Below are positions 2,161 through 57,739 of a DNA stretch of 64,000 nt, piece by piece (position 1 is the stretch's first letter; every line of letters starts with the position of its first letter). Origin of the DNA: Turicibacter bilis (GTDB lineage: Bacteria > Bacillota_I > Bacilli_A > MOL361 > Turicibacteraceae). The stretch is from assembly GCF_024499055.1 (NCBI RefSeq), contig NZ_CP071249.1, forward strand, positions 2,349,001-2,413,000. Direction: 5' to 3'. The notes under the pieces are model-generated. The model was not told where the DNA came from. It worked only from the letters and a program-made list of their open reading frames with translations, and made no database searches. A program made the position numbers and the translations under genes.

Positions 2161-2205
2161 GGGTTCCCTGCCTTGCGAAGCAATTATCCTCTATTGGTAG
2201 GGTAT
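2161..2205 (+). repeat. SHE hairpin element, 45-bp variant
   Basis: Short hairpin element beginning GGGTTCCCTG, with inner stem TTGC-GAA-GCAA and 3' block TATTGGTAGGGTAT. It directly precedes the tandem array. The inner stem sequence differs from the array units but the fold is conserved. Confidence 0.8.
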
Positions 2206-2632
2206 GGGTCCCCTGCGCTAAGTAGTGAGTTTACGAACTCTTAGCTATCCTCCACTGGTAGGGTATGGGTCCCCTGCGCTAAGTAGTGAGTTTACGAACT
2301 CTTAGCTATCCTCCACTGGTAGGGTATGGGTCCCCTGCGCTAAGTAGTGAGTTTACGAACTCTTAGCTATCCTCCACTGGTAGGGTATGGGTCCCCTGCG
2401 CTAAGTAGTGAGTTTACGAACTCTTAGCTATCCTCCACTGGTAGGGTATGGGTCCCCTGCGCTAAGTAGTGAGTTTACGAACTCTTAGCTATCCTCCACT
2501 GGTAGGGTATGGGTCCCCTGCGCTAAGTAGTGAGTTTACGAACTCTTAGCTATCCTCCACTGGTAGGGTATGGGTCCCCTGCGCTAAGTAGTGAGTTTAC
2601 GAACTCTTAGCTATCCTCCACTGGTAGGGTAT
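2206..2632 (+). repeat. Tandem array of seven identical 61-bp SHE units
   Basis: Units start at 2206, 2267, 2328, 2389, 2450, 2511 and 2572, with no spacers and no visible differences. Each unit starts GGGTCCCCTG, has an inner stem GCTAAG/CTTAGC with GAGTT/AACTC inside it, and ends CACTGGTAGGGTAT. Seven identical copies suggest recent amplification by slippage or unequal recombination. Alternatively, repeated insertion occurred at the ATGG that each unit regenerates. No open reading frame or protein homology is seen. Confidence 0.95.
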
Positions 2633-2860
2633 GGGGCGTTCCTATTAGTATACACGTTAGGGAATAGGTCAAATAGGTTAGTAAATAGCCATTTATCTGA
2701 TAAATAGATAGTCATATTTATGATATAATACTTTTAGTATTACTATTTAAAGTGATTAATGTTAAAAAGGTATGTCACAAAATTGAAATAAATGACTTTA
2801 ACAGTTCATAATAAAATAAAACCATTATCTCAAATCAGATAATAATACTGGAGTGTAAAA

Positions 2861-6659: not shown

Positions 6660-6770
6660 AACAAAAAAACATATCTAAAATCAGAATCAACTTCTGTAAT
6701 TAGATATGGGTTCCCTGCGCTAAGTAGTGAGGTCACGAACTCTTAGCTATCCTCCACTAGTAGGGTCATT
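6660..6770 (+). terminator. Terminator hairpin split by a SHE element
   Basis: ACATATCTAA and TTAGATATG form the same terminator stem as at 2075-2130. A SHE element (about 6708-6767: TTCCCTGCGCTAAG, inner stem GCTAAG/CTTAGC, ATCCTCCACTAGTAGGG) interrupts it just before the T run. Confidence 0.7.
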
Positions 6771-6839: not shown

Positions 6840-6985
6840 AAATATTGCGTAAGAGAATTTTTTGGTGGAGATGGGGCGTACCGGTTAGTATCCACGTCTC
6901 ACAATCAAGCGATTAGAGGATATAACTATTGTATTATCCTTATAATATAGATTGTGAGTGAAAAATAATTTATAATGTAAGTAAA
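6840..6985 (+). repeat. ssrA-end-like (att-like) repeat, uninterrupted
   Basis: TTTTTTGGTGGAGATGGGG then CGTACCGGTTAGTATCC and ACGTC: the same core as at 48875-48914, with no SHE insertion. The following stretch (AAGCGATTAGAGG, then a TATAATATAGATTGTGAGT region) is shared with 3393-3480. It probably holds the promoter of the operon that starts at 7047. Confidence 0.7.
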
Positions 6986-7046
6986 GAGTTTAAAGAGATT
7001 TAGGAGTATAATGATAGATATAAATTGTAATTTGGAGGTGTTTTGT

Positions 7047-7262
7047 TTGAGCCAAAAAGAAATTGAGTTTGCTGTATTTTGTGTGGAAAACATTGCTGAT
7101 TATTTAAAGATGAATGCACAGGATATTTATCAATTACTAGGTGTTAAAAGTAGGTTATTATTTGACTATATTGTGCCGTCTTATGAGCCATTACATACAC
7201 AAAGTAAGGAATATATTATAAATGAGATTGTAGATATGATGAAGCAGAAGGAGTTGATCTAA
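7047..7262 (+). CDS. DUF3791-family protein
   Basis: Small (about 71 aa) helical protein that matches the DUF3791 pattern: SQKEIEFAVFCVENIADYL, then YQLLG, then an LLFDYIVPSYEPLHTQS segment. TTTGGAGGTG ends seven bases before TTG at 7047, which puts the likely start there rather than at the ATG at 7011. It overlaps the next gene at the TAATG junction (7260-7264). Position and size fit an antitoxin-like or adaptor role for the DUF3990 protein; that role is inference. Confidence 0.75.
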   Translation: MSQKEIEFAVFCVENIADYLKMNAQDIYQLLGVKSRLLFDYIVPSYEPLHTQSKEYIINEIVDMMKQKELI

Positions 7263-7741
7263 TGCTAGTTTATCATGGTTCTTATTGTGAAATTGTAAAT
7301 CCAGATATTAAATATTCAAGAAATAAATTAGATTTTGGAAAAGGGTTTTATGTCACGCCAATTGAAGAACAAGCGGTTAGTTGGGTATCCAGATTTAAGA
7401 GATTAGGAAAACCAGGTATTGTTAATGTGTATGAGTTTGATTTTGAGAAAGTAAAGCAAGATTTACGTATCCTGATATTTGAGGAGTATAACACTGAGTG
7501 GTTAGATTTTATTATTAAGTGTCGCAATGGTGAATTGATTTATCAGGATTATGATGTTATAGCAGGCGGTATTGCAGATGATAAAGTGTTTAATACGGTT
7601 GAGCTTTACTTGGATCAGTTAATTAGTAAAGAAGAGGCTCTAGGAAGATTAAAATATTATAAACCAAACTTTCAAATCTGTATCGTTAATCAAGAAGTCA
7701 TTGATAACTATTTGACATATAAAGAAAGTAGAGATGTTTAA
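7262..7741 (+). CDS. DUF3990 protein, ADP-ribosyltransferase-like
   Basis: 159 residues. It opens with LVYHGSYCEIVNPD and continues with DFGKGFYVTPIEEQAVSW. This YHGS plus FGxGFYxT pattern resembles the NAD-binding motifs of ART-fold enzymes. Later comes AGGIADDKVF and a NFQICIVNQEVIDNYL segment, where ART enzymes would carry the catalytic acidic motif; here it reads Gln-Ile-Cys. I assign DUF3990 from the pattern. Start and stop overlap both neighbours by one or a few bases, so the three genes are one transcript and probably one functional unit, perhaps a toxin-antitoxin system. Confidence 0.75.
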   Translation: MLVYHGSYCEIVNPDIKYSRNKLDFGKGFYVTPIEEQAVSWVSRFKRLGKPGIVNVYEFDFEKVKQDLRILIFEEYNTEWLDFIIKCRNGELIYQDYDVIAGGIADDKVFNTVELYLDQLISKEEALGRLKYYKPNFQICIVNQEVIDNYLTYKESRDV

Positions 7742-7968
7742 TGGAAGCTAATAAAATTTTATTACAACGGAAATTTGCAAGAATTATTGAAAGCTTAGCT
7801 AAAGAGGCTCATATAACTGAAGAAGAAGCAATGGGATTGTTCTATACATCAAAAACATATCAACTAATTTCACAAGGAATTAGTGATTTACATTGTTATG
7901 CTGATGGATATTTAGTAGATGAACTTATGTTAGAATATCATCTGAAAAAAGATATTGGTTATTATTAA
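7741..7968 (+). CDS. DUF3791-like small protein
   Basis: 75 residues, helical and acidic. RKFARIIESLAKEAHITEEEAMGLFYTSKTYQLI then a YLVDELMLEYH tail. Genes of this type usually lie directly behind DUF3990 and are related to DUF3791. The ATG overlaps the stop of the DUF3990 gene, indicating translational coupling. It is a second candidate antitoxin; which of the two small genes would neutralise the middle protein cannot be told from sequence. Confidence 0.7.
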   Translation: MEANKILLQRKFARIIESLAKEAHITEEEAMGLFYTSKTYQLISQGISDLHCYADGYLVDELMLEYHLKKDIGYY

Positions 7969-8020
7969 AGATGAAATGGTAAGATTCAATATAATAAAGC
8001 ATTATATTGAATGATGATGA

Positions 8021-8056
8021 AAGAAGCTAGCCATAGATAGTGGCTAGCTTCTTTTT
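8021..8056. terminator. Bidirectional terminator
   Basis: AAGAAGCTAGCCA pairs with TGGCTAGCTTCTT, with A and T runs on both sides. It lies between the convergent DUF3990 operon and the nuclease-like gene. Confidence 0.85.
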
Positions 8057-9086
8057 AATTCCATGTAGCTTGATTTAATTGTTGGGCGATTTCTTCAATT
8101 GACATTTCATCAGTGAAGTTTTCGATGAATTGTGTTAAATCAAAATAACGAGTTCCTTGAGGAGCTCCTTTAGTAATTTTTTTGAATTCACATGGAATGA
8201 ATTGTTTTACAAGGAAGAATCTTTGATCTCCACCCCCTAAGTCCTGTCCTTCAGTTTCTAAAACTTCTTTGATGACATCAATGATATTTTGTTTTTGTTG
8301 TGGTGTTAGATGACCTTGTAAGGTATTGATGATATCAAGTTCTTGTGTATCCTGATTAAAATCGGCATCAATGATACAACTAATTTCACCAATTCCACGA
8401 ATCGCTTTTGCTCCATATAGACCGATATATTTATGCAGTCGGTAGTTACGTGTACGAGGTGCGTAGTATAGATTATATTTAAAGTTTCGTTCTAATGTTT
8501 TACTAGTTAAAAGTGATCGCATCAAACTTTCATGATGTGGAATTAAATTAGCATCGTAACAGAACGCTTCAAAGTCATTAATGAGATCGATCATTTCAAC
8601 TTCATACGGATTAAGAACTTCTTTGAATTTCTTACCAATCTCTTTAAATGTTGTAAAGGCAAACTGAATCGAAGTTTTGTGAGCCCGATTATAAATATTA
8701 ATTTCCTTTTCGATTTCTTCACGATACATCTGACTAATTGGATCAGTATTGATCCAGAGTAAGATTTGTTTATCTTCATCAGAGAATGAAGTAAGATGTC
8801 CCATTAATTGTGGAAGGTTTTGTTGACCATAAAGTTTTGTTTCAATCACGATTTTAAAGCTTTCTTGTTCAACAACAGCATCAGGAATACTACCAGTCGC
8901 TTTTACTTGTTGAGAAAACTTCACTGTTGTATCTAACTCTAAATCTGAATCCTCTAAAATTAGATTAATAAACTGCTTAAATCGATGTGTATGATGTTGA
9001 TAAAGTCGATTAAATAATAGTAACGTATTATTAGTCACCATATTCTCTTTTTGAGAATACCTTGGAAAATAATGAATGTCAGCCAT
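8055..9086 (-). CDS. PD-(D/E)XK nuclease-like protein
   Basis: 343 residues, soluble. Near residue 70 the sequence GSIPDAVVEQESFKIVIETK gives Asp, then about 14 residues on, Glu-Thr-Lys: the spacing of a PD-(D/E)XK active site. The next stretch (LPQLMGHLTSFSDEDKQILLWI) fits the rest of that fold. The C-terminal half has no recognised domain. It is divergent from, and adjacent to, the hsdMSR genes, which suggests an accessory defence or repair role. I know no named family for it; nuclease activity is inferred from the motif only. Confidence 0.7.
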   Translation of the reverse strand: MADIHYFPRYSQKENMVTNNTLLLFNRLYQHHTHRFKQFINLILEDSDLELDTTVKFSQQVKATGSIPDAVVEQESFKIVIETKLYGQQNLPQLMGHLTSFSDEDKQILLWINTDPISQMYREEIEKEINIYNRAHKTSIQFAFTTFKEIGKKFKEVLNPYEVEMIDLINDFEAFCYDANLIPHHESLMRSLLTSKTLERNFKYNLYYAPRTRNYRLHKYIGLYGAKAIRGIGEISCIIDADFNQDTQELDIINTLQGHLTPQQKQNIIDVIKEVLETEGQDLGGGDQRFFLVKQFIPCEFKKITKGAPQGTRYFDLTQFIENFTDEMSIEEIAQQLNQATWN

Positions 9087-23229: not shown

Positions 23230-24219
23230 ATGTGTACAGCATTATCATTAACAGCAAAAGATGGTTCACATTTATTCGGTAGAAATATGGATATTGAATA
23301 TTCATTTAATCAGTCAATTTTATTAACACCACGTCGCTTTGACTATAAAAATCGTGCAACAGGTGAAATGAATCAAACAAAGTATGCAGTCATTGGAATG
23401 GGAACCATTATTGATGAACATCCATGTTACGCAGAGCTTTTTAATGAAAAAGGATTAGCAGCAGCGGGATTAAACTTCCCTAACTACGCACACTGGGATG
23501 AAAAAGCGATCGAAGGAAAAACAAATATTCCTCCTTATGATTTAGTTTTATGGGTGACTGCAAACTTTGAAACTGTTCAAGAGGTAAAAGAAGCTTTAAA
23601 AGATGTTGTTTTAGTTGATGTTCCTGTCAATGAGCAAACTCCAATTGCTCCTTTACACTGGATGATTTGTGATAAAACAGGTGAAAGTATCGTTGTAGAA
23701 AAAACAGTTAATGGTTTAAGTGTTATGGATAATAAAGTAGGAGTTTTAACGAATGCGCCAACTTTTGATTGGCATTTAACAAACTTAACTCAATACATGG
23801 GATTAACGTCGACACAACCAAAAGATACAACACTCGGAGAACAAGAATTACATCCATTAGGACAAGGGCTTGGTGCTTTCTCATTACCAGGAGATTATTC
23901 ATCACCATCACGCTTTGTTAAAGCTGCTTTCTTACGTAATAATATCGATTATGCAAATGTTAATTACTCTGGAATCAGTGAATTCTTCCACATCTTAAAT
24001 GGAGTGGCAATGGTTCGAGGAGCAGTCGTTACTCCTCAACATTTAAATGACATTACGTTATATACATCTTGTATGGATCAAGAACGTGGAATTTATTATT
24101 ATAATACTTATACAAATCATACGATTTCAGCTATTAATATGCATAATGAAGATTTAGACGCAAAAGAAATTAAATCATTTAAATTTAATGATGAATTTGC
24201 TGTGACTTTACAAAATTAA
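23230..24219 (+). CDS. bsh: Bile salt hydrolase (choloylglycine hydrolase)
   Basis: 329-residue Ntn-hydrolase that cleaves the glycine or taurine amide of conjugated bile acids. After Met removal, Cys2 becomes the nucleophile (MCTALSLTAKDG). Other active-site positions are visible: Arg18 and Asp21 in FGRNMDIE, Asn in AAAGLNFPNY, Asn in VLTNAPTFDW, and Arg in SSPSRFVKAA. Length and motifs match true BSH; penicillin V acylases share the fold, so substrate preference needs assay. GAAAGGAGAC precedes the ATG. The next gene is an MFS transporter. Confidence 0.93.
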   Translation: MCTALSLTAKDGSHLFGRNMDIEYSFNQSILLTPRRFDYKNRATGEMNQTKYAVIGMGTIIDEHPCYAELFNEKGLAAAGLNFPNYAHWDEKAIEGKTNIPPYDLVLWVTANFETVQEVKEALKDVVLVDVPVNEQTPIAPLHWMICDKTGESIVVEKTVNGLSVMDNKVGVLTNAPTFDWHLTNLTQYMGLTSTQPKDTTLGEQELHPLGQGLGAFSLPGDYSSPSRFVKAAFLRNNIDYANVNYSGISEFFHILNGVAMVRGAVVTPQHLNDITLYTSCMDQERGIYYYNTYTNHTISAINMHNEDLDAKEIKSFKFNDEFAVTLQN

Positions 24220-24240
24220 TAAAAACTTGTTTATCAAAAA

Positions 24241-24268
24241 TATGCTCCTTAAGTTTAAGGAGCATCTC
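24241..24268 (+). other. Hairpin between bsh and transporter
   Basis: ATGCTCCTTAAG pairs with CTTAAGGAGCAT almost perfectly but lacks a long T run. It may be a weak terminator or mRNA-processing hairpin that sets the bsh to transporter ratio. Confidence 0.45.
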
Positions 24269-24297
24269 TAATTAGTCATGTAGAAAGGTCGATTTTT

Positions 24298-25542
24298 ATG
24301 GAACAAACAATCAGTAACTCATCAATAGATAGAAAAAAATATTTTATTATTTTTGTCTGTATGTTTATTCAAGCGATTCCTTTTGGAATTGCTCAAAATA
24401 TTCAACCACTTTTTATTCCATATGTGGTTGAAAAATTTAATTTTTCATTAGCTTCTTTTAGTTTAATTTTTACATTTGGTGCAGTGGCAGCTGCCATTTT
24501 CTCACCATTTTTAGGGAAACTATTTGGAAAAGTTAATATTAAATTATTATTTATTATCGGGACAGCTTTATCAAGCTTAGCCTTTGTTGGTTTTGGTTTT
24601 GCAAAAACTCTACCTGAGTTTTATTTATATTCTGGAATTCAACAAGTAGGATGTGTCCTATTTTCAGGGTTAGGAGTTCCTTATGTTATTAATAACTGGT
24701 TTCCAAATAAAGGACGCGGGAAAGCATTAGGAATTGCCTTCTCTGGTGGATCAATCGGTAATATCTTTTTACAACAATTAACCTCACAATCATTAGCGAC
24801 TAAAGGTCCTTCAGCGTCATATATCATGTTCGGACTTCTTTCTTTAATTGTTAGCTTACCTGTTATTTTATTCTTTATCCGCTTACCTAAAGAAGTAGAA
24901 GAATCTAAAAATGAAACAGAAGCAGTTAATCCTTTAGTTGAAGATGAAGGATTAAGTGCAGCAGAAGTAAGAAAAAGTAAATATTTTTGGATTTTTGTTG
25001 TGGGATATGCCATTATGGCGATTGCTATTTCAGCATTAAGTACACAATATGCGACTTACTTTACAGGAGAACTACATTTTAGCCCAACATTAGTTGGAAC
25101 ACTTGGTTCTGTCTTTGCGGCTTGTTGTTTAATCGGAAATATTGGTGGTGGAGTTTTATTTGATAGATTTGCAACTTTCAAAACAATGTTTATTGCCATG
25201 CTTTTACAAATTATTGCTATTCTCGCGATGTTATTAGCAGAATATATCCCAATGGCAGCTTTCTTATTTTCAATCGGTTATGGATTAAATGTTTACTCAT
25301 ATATGTCTGCCCCTGCTTTTATGGCAAGTGATGTCTTTGGTAAAAAAGAAGCTAGCGTTAAGCTTGGAATTATTAGTTTAGCATTTGCGGTTGGATTTGC
25401 TGCAGGATCAAGTTTATTTGGAATGATTGTAGATCGATCAGGTTTTACTGCTGCATGGATTACTTTACTCGGATGTACAATTGTTGGATATTCTTTACTA
25501 TTAACTGGAATTAAAGGATATAAAAATAAATCTTTATCATAG
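24298..25542 (+). CDS. MFS transporter linked to bile salt hydrolase
   Basis: 414 residues, 12 predicted helices, OFA-like, with FIQAIPFGIAQNIQPLFIPY in helix 1 and GKVNIKLLFIIG before helix 3. It lies 78 bases behind bsh on the same strand. In Lactobacillus johnsonii, MFS transporters next to a bile salt hydrolase (CbsT1/CbsT2) carry conjugated bile acids, so bile-acid uptake or exchange of conjugated for free bile acid is the likely role here. That is inference from context. Paralogue of the gene at 218. Confidence 0.85.
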   Translation: MEQTISNSSIDRKKYFIIFVCMFIQAIPFGIAQNIQPLFIPYVVEKFNFSLASFSLIFTFGAVAAAIFSPFLGKLFGKVNIKLLFIIGTALSSLAFVGFGFAKTLPEFYLYSGIQQVGCVLFSGLGVPYVINNWFPNKGRGKALGIAFSGGSIGNIFLQQLTSQSLATKGPSASYIMFGLLSLIVSLPVILFFIRLPKEVEESKNETEAVNPLVEDEGLSAAEVRKSKYFWIFVVGYAIMAIAISALSTQYATYFTGELHFSPTLVGTLGSVFAACCLIGNIGGGVLFDRFATFKTMFIAMLLQIIAILAMLLAEYIPMAAFLFSIGYGLNVYSYMSAPAFMASDVFGKKEASVKLGIISLAFAVGFAAGSSLFGMIVDRSGFTAAWITLLGCTIVGYSLLLTGIKGYKNKSLS

Positions 25543-29817: not shown

Positions 29818-31465
29818 GTAACTATTCAGCCTAGTAGAAAAGAGTATCACAAAAAGGAGTGCTCATTTAGTGAAGTACTCCTTGTGAATGTTATGAAAAT
29901 TGAATCGTATTTCCCATTAAAATGGTTTCAATACTTTCGATAATATTTAATCCTTGCTTTTGACAAGTAGAGATGAAACCTCTGATTCGGGCGAAACAAT
30001 GAGCACCTTTTTCTGTTCGGAAACATCCGGATATTTTTTGTTTAGTTTTAGTCATTCGGACATCACGCTCAGCTAAATTATTATCAAACGGAACTTCAAC
30101 TTGATACAGAAATTCTAATACTTCTTCTTGTCGTTTCGATAAACGATTGAGTAATCGAACGGAATCCGTATTCTTTTCATGCAGTTTTAAAGGATTCTCA
30201 CGGTAACCCTCTTCGATGATTTGTTGGTATCGTTTCTCAAACTCCTGTATTTTAGATAAGGGTAAAGGATATTCCGTCTCTTCTGAATAAGTTTTAGCTT
30301 CAAGTAATAATTTCGTCATGTTTTTTGCCCACTGTTGGTTCTCAAAATCGATGATTCCTTTAAACTCTCTTAAATGATGAACGTTACATAAAGCATGCGT
30401 ACAATCATCATATTTAAAATACGGGGTCCAATGGTCATGGATGACGGTTCCTTTGAAAGAGGGAAGAATGCCATTGGCTTCAATTGCTTGAGAGCCACGC
30501 TTTTCATGAACAAAGTAATGCGTGAATTTTTGATTTGAAGTCACGTGAAGCCAGTGTCTCTTTCCATTGACATAACAGCCTGTTTCATCTAAATGAAGAT
30601 GATTTGATGCCAAAAGATTTTCTTTGATTGAAGCTTCAGTCGTTTCTAATAACTCATCACATCGTTTCGTCATATTCACCAGTGTTCCTTGGCTGATGGT
30701 CGCTTTGAAAATATCTTGAGTCAATTGTTTCAGACGGTTGAAAGGAATCAATTGATAGTGACTGAAATAAGTTAATACACTTGTTAAATGTGGCCCATAT
30801 TGTGTCGGTTGTGTGACATGTTTCGGAAATAGTCCTTCATTTTTAAAGTGACAGTTAGGACATACTTTAATTTGAGATTGATGCTCAGTGACTTGAAGCC
30901 TTAATCTCGGTAAATCAAAAACTTGACGTCGAATCGTTTTTTGAGGTTCAACGTTTTCTAAACAACACCCACACCCTCGGCAAATTTTCGGATGATGTGT
31001 GACGACATGATCCGGATCTTTTATCATTTTTAAGGTTGAACCTTGATGTCCGACTTGACCACCCGGTTTTTTATTTGAAGGTTGACGCAAACTTTTTGTC
31101 TTTTTAAAACCATCGGTTGAGGGAGGCAAACTACTGTTTTGACTTGTTTTATTTGATTGTTTTTCAAGTTTTTTAAGGCGAGCATCTAAATCTGAAATGA
31201 TTTTATTTTGTTTCTCAATCGTTTGAGATAAATCAGAGATTTGAGTGGAAAGTCCTTGAACTAAAGTAATGACGGATTGAATTCCTTCATGATAAACTTT
31301 GATGATTTCAGATTCTGACATAAGATGACACCTTCTTCTAAAGTTGGAATAGTAAGGATATTATAACGTAAATCTTATAAATAGGTAAGTTATTCACGAG
31401 AGCTACATATCATTAACAAAACCACCAATAAACGGAATTCGTTTACTTGGTGGCTGAATAGTTAC
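29818..31465 (-). mobile_element. IS66-family element, ISBst12-type, copy 1
   Basis: 1648 bp bounded by perfect inverted repeats GTAACTATTCAGCC and GGCTGAATAGTTAC. Single transposase gene, without tnpA or tnpB of its own. It has landed in the tnpC of another IS66-type element. A copy of the same length and encoding the same protein lies at 40134-41781 in inverse orientation. No clean target duplication is evident. Confidence 0.92.
29891..31321 (-). CDS. IS66-family transposase TnpC (ISBst12 type)
   Basis: 476 residues. A coiled-coil start (QTIEKQNKIISDLDARLKKL) leads to KKPGGQVGHQGSTL and a zinc-finger-like segment (CRGCGCCLENV ... CPNCHFKNEG). The DDE transposase core follows: HLHLDETGCYVNGKRHWLHV, then GTVIHDHWTPYF, HALCNVHHLREF and NNLAERDVRMTK. 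The C-terminal tail is intact. Nothing is broken, and the identical second copy suggests recent activity. Confidence 0.95.
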   Translation of the reverse strand: MSESEIIKVYHEGIQSVITLVQGLSTQISDLSQTIEKQNKIISDLDARLKKLEKQSNKTSQNSSLPPSTDGFKKTKSLRQPSNKKPGGQVGHQGSTLKMIKDPDHVVTHHPKICRGCGCCLENVEPQKTIRRQVFDLPRLRLQVTEHQSQIKVCPNCHFKNEGLFPKHVTQPTQYGPHLTSVLTYFSHYQLIPFNRLKQLTQDIFKATISQGTLVNMTKRCDELLETTEASIKENLLASNHLHLDETGCYVNGKRHWLHVTSNQKFTHYFVHEKRGSQAIEANGILPSFKGTVIHDHWTPYFKYDDCTHALCNVHHLREFKGIIDFENQQWAKNMTKLLLEAKTYSEETEYPLPLSKIQEFEKRYQQIIEEGYRENPLKLHEKNTDSVRLLNRLSKRQEEVLEFLYQVEVPFDNNLAERDVRMTKTKQKISGCFRTEKGAHCFARIRGFISTCQKQGLNIIESIETILMGNTIQFS

Positions 31466-40156: not shown

Positions 40157-41781
40157 ACGAATTCCGTTTATTGGTGGTTTTGTTAATGATATGTAGCTCT
40201 CGTGAATAACTTACCTATTTATAAGATTTACGTTATAATATCCTTACTATTCCAACTTTAGAAGAAGGTGTCATCTTATGTCAGAATCTGAAATCATCAA
40301 AGTTTATCATGAAGGAATTCAATCCGTCATTACTTTAGTTCAAGGACTTTCCACTCAAATCTCTGATTTATCTCAAACGATTGAGAAACAAAATAAAATC
40401 ATTTCAGATTTAGATGCTCGCCTTAAAAAACTTGAAAAACAATCAAATAAAACAAGTCAAAACAGTAGTTTGCCTCCCTCAACCGATGGTTTTAAAAAGA
40501 CAAAAAGTTTGCGTCAACCTTCAAATAAAAAACCGGGTGGTCAAGTCGGACATCAAGGTTCAACCTTAAAAATGATAAAAGATCCGGATCATGTCGTCAC
40601 ACATCATCCGAAAATTTGCCGAGGGTGTGGGTGTTGTTTAGAAAACGTTGAACCTCAAAAAACGATTCGACGTCAAGTTTTTGATTTACCGAGATTAAGG
40701 CTTCAAGTCACTGAGCATCAATCTCAAATTAAAGTATGTCCTAACTGTCACTTTAAAAATGAAGGACTATTTCCGAAACATGTCACACAACCGACACAAT
40801 ATGGGCCACATTTAACAAGTGTATTAACTTATTTCAGTCACTATCAATTGATTCCTTTCAACCGTCTGAAACAATTGACTCAAGATATTTTCAAAGCGAC
40901 CATCAGCCAAGGAACACTGGTGAATATGACGAAACGATGTGATGAGTTATTAGAAACGACTGAAGCTTCAATCAAAGAAAATCTTTTGGCATCAAATCAT
41001 CTTCATTTAGATGAAACAGGCTGTTATGTCAATGGAAAGAGACACTGGCTTCACGTGACTTCAAATCAAAAATTCACGCATTACTTTGTTCATGAAAAGC
41101 GTGGCTCTCAAGCAATTGAAGCCAATGGCATTCTTCCCTCTTTCAAAGGAACCGTCATCCATGACCATTGGACCCCGTATTTTAAATATGATGATTGTAC
41201 GCATGCTTTATGTAACGTTCATCATTTAAGAGAGTTTAAAGGAATCATCGATTTTGAGAACCAACAGTGGGCAAAAAACATGACGAAATTATTACTTGAA
41301 GCTAAAACTTATTCAGAAGAGACGGAATATCCTTTACCCTTATCTAAAATACAGGAGTTTGAGAAACGATACCAACAAATCATCGAAGAGGGTTACCGTG
41401 AGAATCCTTTAAAACTGCATGAAAAGAATACGGATTCCGTTCGATTACTCAATCGTTTATCGAAACGACAAGAAGAAGTATTAGAATTTCTGTATCAAGT
41501 TGAAGTTCCGTTTGATAATAATTTAGCTGAGCGTGATGTCCGAATGACTAAAACTAAACAAAAAATATCCGGATGTTTCCGAACAGAAAAAGGTGCTCAT
41601 TGTTTCGCCCGAATCAGAGGTTTCATCTCTACTTGTCAAAAGCAAGGATTAAATATTATCGAAAGTATTGAAACCATTTTAATGGGAAATACGATTCAAT
41701 TTTCATAACATTCACAAGGAGTACTTCACTAAATGAGCACTCCTTTTTGTGATACTCTTTTCTACTAGGCTGAATAGTTAC
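40134..41781 (+). mobile_element. IS66-family element, ISBst12-type, copy 2
   Basis: Same 1648-bp length, same inverted repeats and same encoded protein as 29818-31465, in the opposite orientation. Together they enclose 8.7 kb holding the ECF operon, HAD and hydrolase genes. Confidence 0.93.
40278..41708 (+). CDS. IS66-family transposase TnpC (ISBst12 type)
   Basis: Protein identical over its 476 residues to the product of 29891-31321: coiled-coil start, KKPGGQVGHQG, zinc-finger-like cysteines and DDE core (HLDETGCYVNGK, TVIHDHWTPYF, NNLAERDVR). Intact. Identity between copies means very recent transposition or gene conversion. Confidence 0.95.
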   Translation: MSESEIIKVYHEGIQSVITLVQGLSTQISDLSQTIEKQNKIISDLDARLKKLEKQSNKTSQNSSLPPSTDGFKKTKSLRQPSNKKPGGQVGHQGSTLKMIKDPDHVVTHHPKICRGCGCCLENVEPQKTIRRQVFDLPRLRLQVTEHQSQIKVCPNCHFKNEGLFPKHVTQPTQYGPHLTSVLTYFSHYQLIPFNRLKQLTQDIFKATISQGTLVNMTKRCDELLETTEASIKENLLASNHLHLDETGCYVNGKRHWLHVTSNQKFTHYFVHEKRGSQAIEANGILPSFKGTVIHDHWTPYFKYDDCTHALCNVHHLREFKGIIDFENQQWAKNMTKLLLEAKTYSEETEYPLPLSKIQEFEKRYQQIIEEGYRENPLKLHEKNTDSVRLLNRLSKRQEEVLEFLYQVEVPFDNNLAERDVRMTKTKQKISGCFRTEKGAHCFARIRGFISTCQKQGLNIIESIETILMGNTIQFS

Positions 41782-48849: not shown

Positions 48850-48916
48850 TCTGTAACAGTTGCGGACGTGGATATTATGGTGGAGATGGGGCGTTCCGGT
48901 TAGTATCCACGTCCCA
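48850..48916 (+). repeat. ssrA-3'-end copy forming a hairpin, candidate attachment site
   Basis: CTGTAACAGTTG, GGACGTGGATATTATGG and TGGAGATGGGG match the true ssrA 3' end and its downstream flank (57367-57406). Instead of the rest of ssrA, the right side is CGTTCCGGTTAG and TATCCACGTCC. GGACGTGGATA (48864-48874) and TATCCACGTCC (48904-48914) are perfect inverted repeats. It lies 0.8 kb behind the serine recombinase. Confidence 0.75.
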
Positions 48917-57393: not shown

Positions 57394-57739
57394 TGGTGGA
57401 GATGGGGGGAGTCGAACCCCCGTCCTAAAACACCGACCACTTAACTTTCTACAAGTTTAGTCTCCTATTAAATTTAACGGGTGACTGGTTAGGCGACACA
57501 CCTGTCAGACCGCGAGTTTGATCATCTCTTCTAGGCTATTCAAACGGCACAGACTAGCGTATCCCACTACAGTGAGCCTAGTCATTCAACATGGGCGATT
57601 GAATGGTAGGCAGCTACGTTATATTAAGCAGCTAATTGTAAGTTTGTTTTTCCGGTTATTAAAACCTCGACCTTTTAACGTGGGTTAACACGACTTGCTT
57701 ATTAAGCTCAAATGCCCCAGTCGAATCCGTAACATCCCC
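57394..57739 (-). ncRNA. ssrA: Transfer-messenger RNA (tmRNA, SsrA)
   Basis: One-piece tmRNA of about 346 nt that rescues stalled ribosomes. The 5' end on the minus strand is GGGGATGTTACGGATTCGAC then TGGGG. The 3' end has the T-arm GGGGGTTCGACTCCCCC followed by CATCTCCACCA, with CCA encoded; GGGGATG and CATCTCC form the acceptor stem. The tag reading frame at 57624-57653 encodes GKTNLQLAA and a stop, ending in the usual Leu-Ala-Ala degradation signal. Its 3' end is a common integration target, and copies of it occur elsewhere in this window. Confidence 0.96.

What the first reader, a model, noticed from the sequence alone, without database searches (positions are those of the whole stretch)
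7047..7968. Overlapping DUF3791-DUF3990-DUF3791-like operon: possible ADP-ribosylating toxin-antitoxin system
Three genes overlap by one to a few bases. The middle protein has YHGS and FGKGFYVT motifs resembling ADP-ribosyltransferase NAD-binding sites; the partners are small and helical. The operon follows att-like repeats in an island, the usual setting of addiction or defence modules. I know of no experimental description of this trio.
Basis: inference. Interest (0 to 1): 0.72.

Follow-up and report, generated by a model that had tools for sequence, protein, structure and literature searches.

The report
ADP-ribosyltransferase toxin with paired antitoxin-like proteins
Three tiny overlapping genes on a mobile island most likely form a toxin-antitoxin unit: the middle gene has the fold of NAD-using ADP-ribosyltransferase toxins, and the two flanking genes are related to each other and look like two halves of its antitoxin; the trio is already catalogued, without a function, as a widespread phage-defence candidate.

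Summary
A (7047-7262, DUF3791), B (7262-7741, DUF3990) and C (7741-7968, remote DUF3791) overlap by one base at each junction (TAATG). B has an ADP-ribosyltransferase (ART) fold: high-confidence model (pLDDT 94), a significant match to phage ART-PolyVal, and weak sequence matches to ART-PolyVal and PARP. For a Bacteroides trio modelled as one chain, the best solved-structure matches are the toxins of RES-Xre and ParT-ParS.

The trio is not a new module. PADLOC already lists it as phage-defence candidate PDC-M13, and Pfam already places DUF3990 in the ART clan. No functional study was found in the open-access library.

New here is evidence for how it works. A and C are homologues. C and A are fused into one protein on Bacteroides conjugative plasmids, and A is fused to an Xre DNA-binding domain elsewhere. 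Where the contig is complete, intact B is never found without A and C, whereas B is broken or missing beside intact A and C.

Best explanation: a type II-like toxin-antitoxin system with an ART toxin and a two-part paralogous antitoxin. It works like ParST but belongs to neither the RES-Xre nor the DarTG family. Toxicity, binding, target and trigger are inferred. The island is integrated at ssrA.

The parts
7032..7040 (+). Shine-Dalgarno-like TTGGAGGTG upstream of the TTG start of A
   Evidence: sequence read directly
7047..7262 (+). gene A, DUF3791, 71 aa, five predicted helices; proposed antitoxin half (Xre-HTH-fused in variants)
   Evidence: Pfam 67.6 bits; PADLOC PDC-M13A E 7e-33; Xre-DUF3791 fusions in this slot; helices in the L127 model
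7262..7741 (+). gene B, DUF3990, 159 aa, ART-fold enzyme; proposed toxin; candidate catalytic residues H5, Y30, Q138
   Evidence: Pfam 169 bits; PDC-M13B E 9e-65; AF2 pLDDT 94.3; Foldseek to phage ART-PolyVal E 5e-5; invariants
7741..7968 (+). gene C, remote DUF3791 paralogue of A, 75 aa; proposed second antitoxin half
   Evidence: PDC-M13C E 2e-33; hhalign with A E 2.5e-9; 30/40 orthologues hit DUF3791
8019..8055 (.). strong hairpin with T-run, shared terminator between C and the converging ORF 8055-9086
   Evidence: RNA fold -27.2 kcal/mol for 7990-8056, z -7.2; the simple terminator scan did not list it
6863..6876 (+). att core, left end of the island that carries the trio
   Evidence: exact repeat of the ssrA 3'-end core
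48878..48891 (+). att core, right end of the trio's island and left end of the next island
57394..57407 (+). att core inside the 3' end of ssrA (tmRNA)
57394..57739 (-). tmRNA gene ssrA, integration target
   Evidence: ARAGORN; Rfam RF00023
46448..48088 (+). large serine recombinase, likely integrase of the island
   Evidence: Pfam Resolvase, Recombinase, Zn_ribbon_recom

Best explanation
The trio is a mobile type II-like toxin-antitoxin module. B is a small ADP-ribosyltransferase-fold toxin of the PARP-like H-Y-[E/D/Q] type; its candidate catalytic residues are H5, Y30 and, by inference, Q138. When free it would use NAD+ to modify, or simply to consume NAD+ at the expense of, something essential in its own cell. 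A and C are homologous all-helical proteins that are always made with it from one translationally coupled message, and they most likely bind B together as a two-part (heterodimeric) antitoxin. In variants, A carries an Xre DNA-binding domain, the usual arrangement for an autorepressing antitoxin. Loss of the island or plasmid, or shut-down of host expression by a phage, would leave B unneutralised and arrest the cell, giving addiction, abortive phage defence or both. Shown: conserved overlapping trio, ART fold, A-C homology, natural C-A and Xre-A fusions, one-sided loss of B, mobile setting. Inferred: toxicity, neutralisation, stoichiometry, chemistry, target and trigger.
For: ART fold: AF2 model of B pLDDT 94.3, pTM 0.87; Foldseek to phage ART-PolyVal E 5e-5, prob 1.0, plus iridovirus and Megaviridae PARPs and a rifampin ADP-ribosyl transferase; 22 of 89 orthologues match ART-PolyVal weakly (best E 6e-5), 3 match PARP; Pfam ART clan (PMC7955679). 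For the L127 trio chain the top five PDB hits are RES-Xre 6gw6 and ParT-ParS 6d0h/6d0i toxins (prob 0.66-0.96, E 0.045-0.28), followed by PARP14, tankyrase and PARP15. Unit: A up and C down in 74 of 99 loci, mostly -4/-1 overlaps; other orders B-C-A exist. Antitoxin logic: Xre HTH_3 fused to DUF3791 in the A slot of L020, L022, L053; C-type and A-type domains fused in one 149-aa protein on pBF9343; DUF3990 also occurs as an Rhs effector C-terminus with an immunity gene (PMC4524185). Loss asymmetry: B carries a premature stop with A and C open in L040, L065, L071, L072; among L065-L144 no locus with intact B lacks A or C; orphan A+C pairs without B in L176 and L178. Selection: window against G001 Kn/Ks for B 0.05. 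Mobility: a 992-bp, 94% identical cassette in two genomes with different flanks; 36 plasmid records, 30 conjugative, carry a near-identical module.
Against: No toxicity or binding data. Foldseek against PDB for B alone is not significant (best tankyrase TM 0.44); the trio-chain hits have E above 0.04. The third catalytic residue is Q, not E, and its assignment rests on invariance and topology. The L127 trio chain has pTM 0.70 only, and no coordinates were exposed, so the interface could not be inspected. The asymmetric loss counts are small, and loci were found through B, so B-less loci are under-sampled. A itself has no significant HTH match, so how this version is regulated is unknown.
Confidence: 0.74

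Rival explanations
1. A dedicated phage-defence system rather than an addiction module: A and/or C are the sensor of infection and B is the effector, with no role in element stability.
For: PADLOC lists the trio as candidate PDC-M13, and related DUF3990 pairs as PDC-M10 and PDC-M42. In the window it sits beside a complete type I restriction-modification operon. Several of 92 nearest large ORFs in 46 relatives are defence genes such as MTase_I, MTase_III, DolB, AbiLi, PtuB, Cas6 and DRT. PDC-M13 is reported 3324 times in rumen genomes (PMC13356809).
Against: Most nearest neighbours are not defence genes (no control set). The module is also kept on conjugative Bacteroides plasmids beside a zeta toxin and transfer genes, a plasmid-stability setting. 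No phage challenge data were found.
Confidence: 0.35
2. B is an NAD+ glycohydrolase or phosphorylase that depletes NAD+, like MbcT/RES, and not a macromolecule-modifying transferase; A and C are still its antitoxin.
For: The best solved-structure hits of the trio chain are RES and ParT toxins, a family known to include NAD+-degrading members (general knowledge). Q replaces the usual catalytic E.
Against: The motif layout is PARP/PolyVal-like (YHGS...FGxGFYxT), and the sequence-level matches are to ART-PolyVal and PARP, not to RES.
Confidence: 0.3
3. Only one partner is the antitoxin and the other is a chaperone, sensor or regulator, as in the three-gene CmdTAC system.
For: A and C are strongly diverged (17% identity in the window) and have different conserved motifs; the HTH is found fused to A.
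Against: A and C are homologues and are fused into one protein on pBF9343, which favours a shared role. The families matched by C members (DUF3791 plus a few weak ones) include no SecB-like chaperone.
Confidence: 0.3
4. B is a non-toxic regulatory or counter-defence ART (AcrIF11-like) and A and C are adaptors.
For: ART folds also serve as anti-CRISPR and phage enzymes (PMC12421852, listed); divergent DUF3990-like proteins occur in phage contigs (L059-L064).
Against: Intact B is strictly kept with A and C, orphan A and C persist without B, and the Xre-antitoxin architecture is present.
Confidence: 0.08

Closest known systems
PADLOC phage-defence candidate PDC-M13 (DUF3791-DUF3990-DUF3791)
   Same: All three window proteins match its three component models in order.
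   Different: Nothing structural; it is listed without a function. This report adds a proposed mechanism and links it to PDC-M10 and PDC-M42, which share the DUF3990 enzyme.
RES-Xre / ParT-ParS toxin-antitoxin family
   Same: Small ART-fold toxin, Xre-type antitoxin in the variant operons; top solved-structure hits.
   Different: No RES domain hit in any of 89 orthologues; HGS / FGxGFYxT / Q motif layout; two DUF3791 partners instead of one Xre-DUF2384 protein.
DarT-DarG
   Same: ART toxin in a toxin-antitoxin operon, phage-defence context.
   Different: No DarT match and no macrodomain or NADAR antitoxin; partners are small helical proteins, so neutralisation by binding, not by ADP-ribose removal, is expected.
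CmdTAC
   Same: Three-gene ART-based anti-phage module.
   Different: C is a paralogue of A; its Pfam matches include no SecB-like chaperone.
Rhs5-CT / RhsI5 of Serratia marcescens
   Same: DUF3990 as the toxic tip of a secreted effector with a neighbouring immunity gene (PMC4524185).
   Different: Here B is a free-standing intracellular protein with DUF3791 partners, not a delivered effector domain.

Membership tests
DUF3990 (PF13151) | Pfam profile match over the cut-off | tested here: met
   169.3 bits against 32.2
DUF3791 (PF12668) | A matches the profile over the cut-off | tested here: met
   67.6 bits against 25
DUF3791 (PF12668) | C matches the profile over the cut-off | tested here: not met
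   21.7 bits against 25; but 30/40 orthologues hit it and A-C hhalign E 2.5e-9, so C is a remote homologue
ADP-ribosyltransferase superfamily, H-Y-[EDQ] group | ART fold | tested here: met
   Foldseek to viral ARTs E 5e-5, prob 1.0; PDB hits ART-dominated but above E 0.001
ADP-ribosyltransferase superfamily, H-Y-[EDQ] group | conserved H (strand 1) and Y (strand 2) | tested here: met
   H5 and Y30 invariant or nearly so; N-terminal ART-PolyVal HMM alignment
ADP-ribosyltransferase superfamily, H-Y-[EDQ] group | catalytic E/D/Q on a late strand | tested here: inconclusive
   Q138 invariant at the start of strand 136-141; position not verified on a superposition
ADP-ribosyltransferase superfamily, H-Y-[EDQ] group | NAD+-dependent transferase activity | not testable with these tools
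   needs enzymology
PADLOC PDC-M13 | three component models in one operon | tested here: met
   E 7e-33, 9e-65, 2e-33
Type II toxin-antitoxin system | obligate, translationally coupled toxin and antitoxin genes | tested here: met
Type II toxin-antitoxin system | antitoxin fused to a DNA-binding domain for autoregulation | tested here: inconclusive
   met in L020, L022, L053; A of the window has no significant HTH
Type II toxin-antitoxin system | toxin can be lost with antitoxin kept, not the reverse | tested here: met
   4 loci with B broken and A, C intact; 0 complete loci of L065-L144 with B intact and A or C lost; orphan A+C pairs; small numbers
Type II toxin-antitoxin system | toxicity and neutralisation by a protein partner | not testable with these tools
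   needs expression tests
RES-Xre (ParST/MbcTA) | RES domain in the toxin | tested here: not met
   no RES hit among the Pfam families matched by 89 orthologues; similarity by fold only
DarTG | DarT domain and macrodomain antitoxin | tested here: not met
   no DarT, macro or NADAR match in A, B or C
CmdTAC | SecB-like chaperone as third gene | tested here: not met
   no SecB-like family among the Pfam matches of 40 C orthologues

The most novel reading that the evidence does not exclude
A superfamily of ART toxins whose antitoxin is built from two paralogous DUF3791-fold halves that together clamp one toxin. The halves occur as separate genes (PDC-M13), fused head to tail (pBF9343 and probably PDC-M10), or joined to an Xre repressor. 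This would unify three unexplained PADLOC defence candidates (M10, M13, probably M42) under one mechanism.
Probability: 0.5. Interest if true: 0.68.

Novelty: new variant of a known kind. Interest (0 to 1): 0.52.

Why it matters
DUF3990 was found in 50 of 392 sampled genomes of the window's phylum, in close relatives from at least eight phyla, and PDC-M13 is reported 3324 times in rumen genomes. Yet no function has been reported in the open literature searched. A testable mechanism (ART toxin plus two-part antitoxin) would give a large set of gut and rumen mobile elements a function, explain three catalogue entries at once, and point to a new antitoxin design for comparison with DarTG, ParST and CmdTAC.

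Tried and rejected
DarT as closest relative: no DarT-like sequence match and no DarT among the listed structure hits. Sequence search of PDB with B alone or its profile: nothing. NCBIfam: no family for A, B or C. A as an HTH protein: only chance-level hits. First genome-collection search with a wide alignment failed for lack of a conserved stretch; a narrower alignment worked. A first alignment for the trio model put A rows onto C because A and C are homologous; those rows were dropped. A search for ART-PolyVal relatives to align the third catalytic residue gave only one good copy, with a stop codon. The promoter scan was no better than shuffles.

Full report
What is there. Three ORFs on the + strand, A 7047-7262 (71 aa, TTG start behind a GGAGG Shine-Dalgarno), B 7262-7741 (159 aa) and C 7741-7968 (75 aa), are joined by two TAATG junctions, so each overlap is one base. 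A strong hairpin with a T-run closes the unit. A is DUF3791, B is DUF3990, C is a sub-threshold DUF3791. PADLOC matches the three proteins, in order, to the components of its phage-defence candidate PDC-M13. The open-access library holds no functional study of DUF3990 or DUF3791. Pfam already puts DUF3990 in the ART clan (PMC7955679), and a DUF3990 tip is known on an Rhs effector with an adjacent immunity gene (PMC4524185).

The unit is real and widespread. From 80 genome loci and 25 viral-contig loci, 99 with a near-complete B were examined: 74 have an A homologue upstream and a C homologue downstream, most with the 4-base or 1-base overlaps of translational coupling. The 80 genome loci come from Bacillota, Bacteroidota, Spirochaetota, Synergistota, Campylobacterota, Pseudomonadota, Actinomycetota and Myxococcota, by record title. 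Other orders (B-C-A) exist. DUF3990 was found in 50 of 392 genomes sampled from the window's phylum. Between the window and another genome of the genus, a 992-bp stretch that spans just the trio is 94% identical while the flanks differ. Kn/Ks is 0.05 for B and 0.14 for A and C, the latter on few changes.

B is an ART. The AF2 model from 89 sequences has pLDDT 94.3 and pTM 0.87. Foldseek finds a phage ART-PolyVal protein (E 5e-5, prob 1.0), viral PARPs and a rifampin ADP-ribosyl transferase among viral models. Against solved structures the hits of B alone are not significant, but the best TM-scores are PARPs. Modelled within the L127 trio chain, the top five solved structures are the RES-Xre and ParT-ParS toxins, then PARP14, tankyrase 1 and PARP15 (E 0.045 and above). 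Twenty-two of 89 orthologues match ART-PolyVal weakly, best E 6e-5. Invariant residues include H5 in YHGS, Y30 in FGxGFYxT, and Q138 at the start of a late strand. H5 and Y30 fit the H-Y-[E/D/Q] group; Q138 as the third residue is an inference.

A and C are two copies of one thing. Their profiles align at E 2.5e-9 (1.3e-7), most C orthologues hit the DUF3791 model, and both show the same five-helix order in the L127 trio chain. On the conjugative plasmid pBF9343 and its relatives the protein upstream of DUF3990 is a single 149-aa chain with a C-type domain (residues about 15-76) and an A-type domain (82-148). In the PDC-M10 variant the 150-aa partner has an A-type first half (hhalign E 1.8e-6) and a possible C-type second half (E 0.002, weak). 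In L020, L022 and L053 the A slot holds an Xre helix-turn-helix fused to DUF3791. Another variant fuses Xre directly to DUF3990 (L037), and others put an HTH on the partner (L010, L023). These fusions are the strongest reason to read A and C as parts of one antitoxin.

Loss is one-sided. L040, L065, L071 and L072 carry a premature stop in B while A and C are open. Among the 80 genome loci none with intact B lacks A or C; the two exceptions to completeness are a contig edge (L134) and a fully decayed copy (L143). In 392 genomes, 14 of 22 above-threshold DUF3791 genes sit by a DUF3990 hit and 8 do not (counted by hand). Two of those 8 are A+C pairs with no B (L176, L178). Numbers are small and MAG errors are possible, but the direction is that of an antitoxin outliving its toxin.

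Setting. The core TGGTGGAGATGGGG occurs at 6863, 48878 and 57394, the last being the 3' end of ssrA. In four genomes of the genus it occurs only 2-4 times each, always on one strand, within one part of the chromosome. The window thus holds tandem islands integrated at ssrA: one from 6863 to 48891 with a large serine recombinase at its right end, and a second to 57394. The trio lies 184 bp inside the left end of the first, ahead of a type I restriction operon. In G001 it lies beside an att core in another context. Several nearest large ORFs in relatives are defence genes, while on plasmids a zeta toxin gene overlaps the next gene. Both a defence and an addiction role remain open.

How it most likely works. 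A and C, translated with B from one message, bind B and block its NAD+ site; freed B modifies an essential target or drains NAD+ and stops growth. What is shown is the anatomy, fold, homology, fusions and loss pattern; toxicity, binding, target and trigger are inferred. It works like ParST but is not a member of RES-Xre (no RES domain), DarTG (no DarT or macrodomain) or CmdTAC (no SecB-like gene). Novelty is moderate: a known catalogue entry with a new, testable mechanism and a possible unification of PDC-M10, M13 and M42.

Limits. The structure tool gave no coordinates, so interfaces and the position of Q138 could not be inspected. The L127 trio chain joins neighbouring genes by reading their stop codons as glycine and its pTM of 0.70 is only suggestive.

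Noticed in passing
window 2185-2635: 7.4 near-identical tandem copies of a 61-bp unit lie inside an ssrA-att-like site (left half near 2150, right half near 2630); single units occur near 6700-6770 and the unit is dispersed in the genus. Looks like repeated insertion at the attachment site; unexplained.
   Followed up: partly
window 6863-57407: Two islands integrated in tandem at the 3' end of ssrA; the same 14-bp core marks such arrays in four genomes of the genus.
   Followed up: partly
window 23230-25542: A choloylglycine (bile salt) hydrolase-like gene followed by an MFS transporter sits inside the ssrA island, judged from the translation only.
   Followed up: no
window 29891-31321 and 40278-41708: Two identical 476-aa transposase-like ORFs in opposite orientation flank an ECF-transporter-like region, a possible invertible or composite segment.
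   Followed up: no
window 8055-9086: Converging ORF between the trio and the type I restriction operon with a PD-(D/E)XK-like stretch (IPDAVVEQ...IETK) and only a weak DUF7809 match; possible defence nuclease.
   Followed up: no
L166:5555-7612: On Bacteroides conjugative plasmids the DUF3791-DUF3990 module is followed by a small ORF that overlaps a zeta-toxin gene, possibly a composite addiction cassette.
   Followed up: partly
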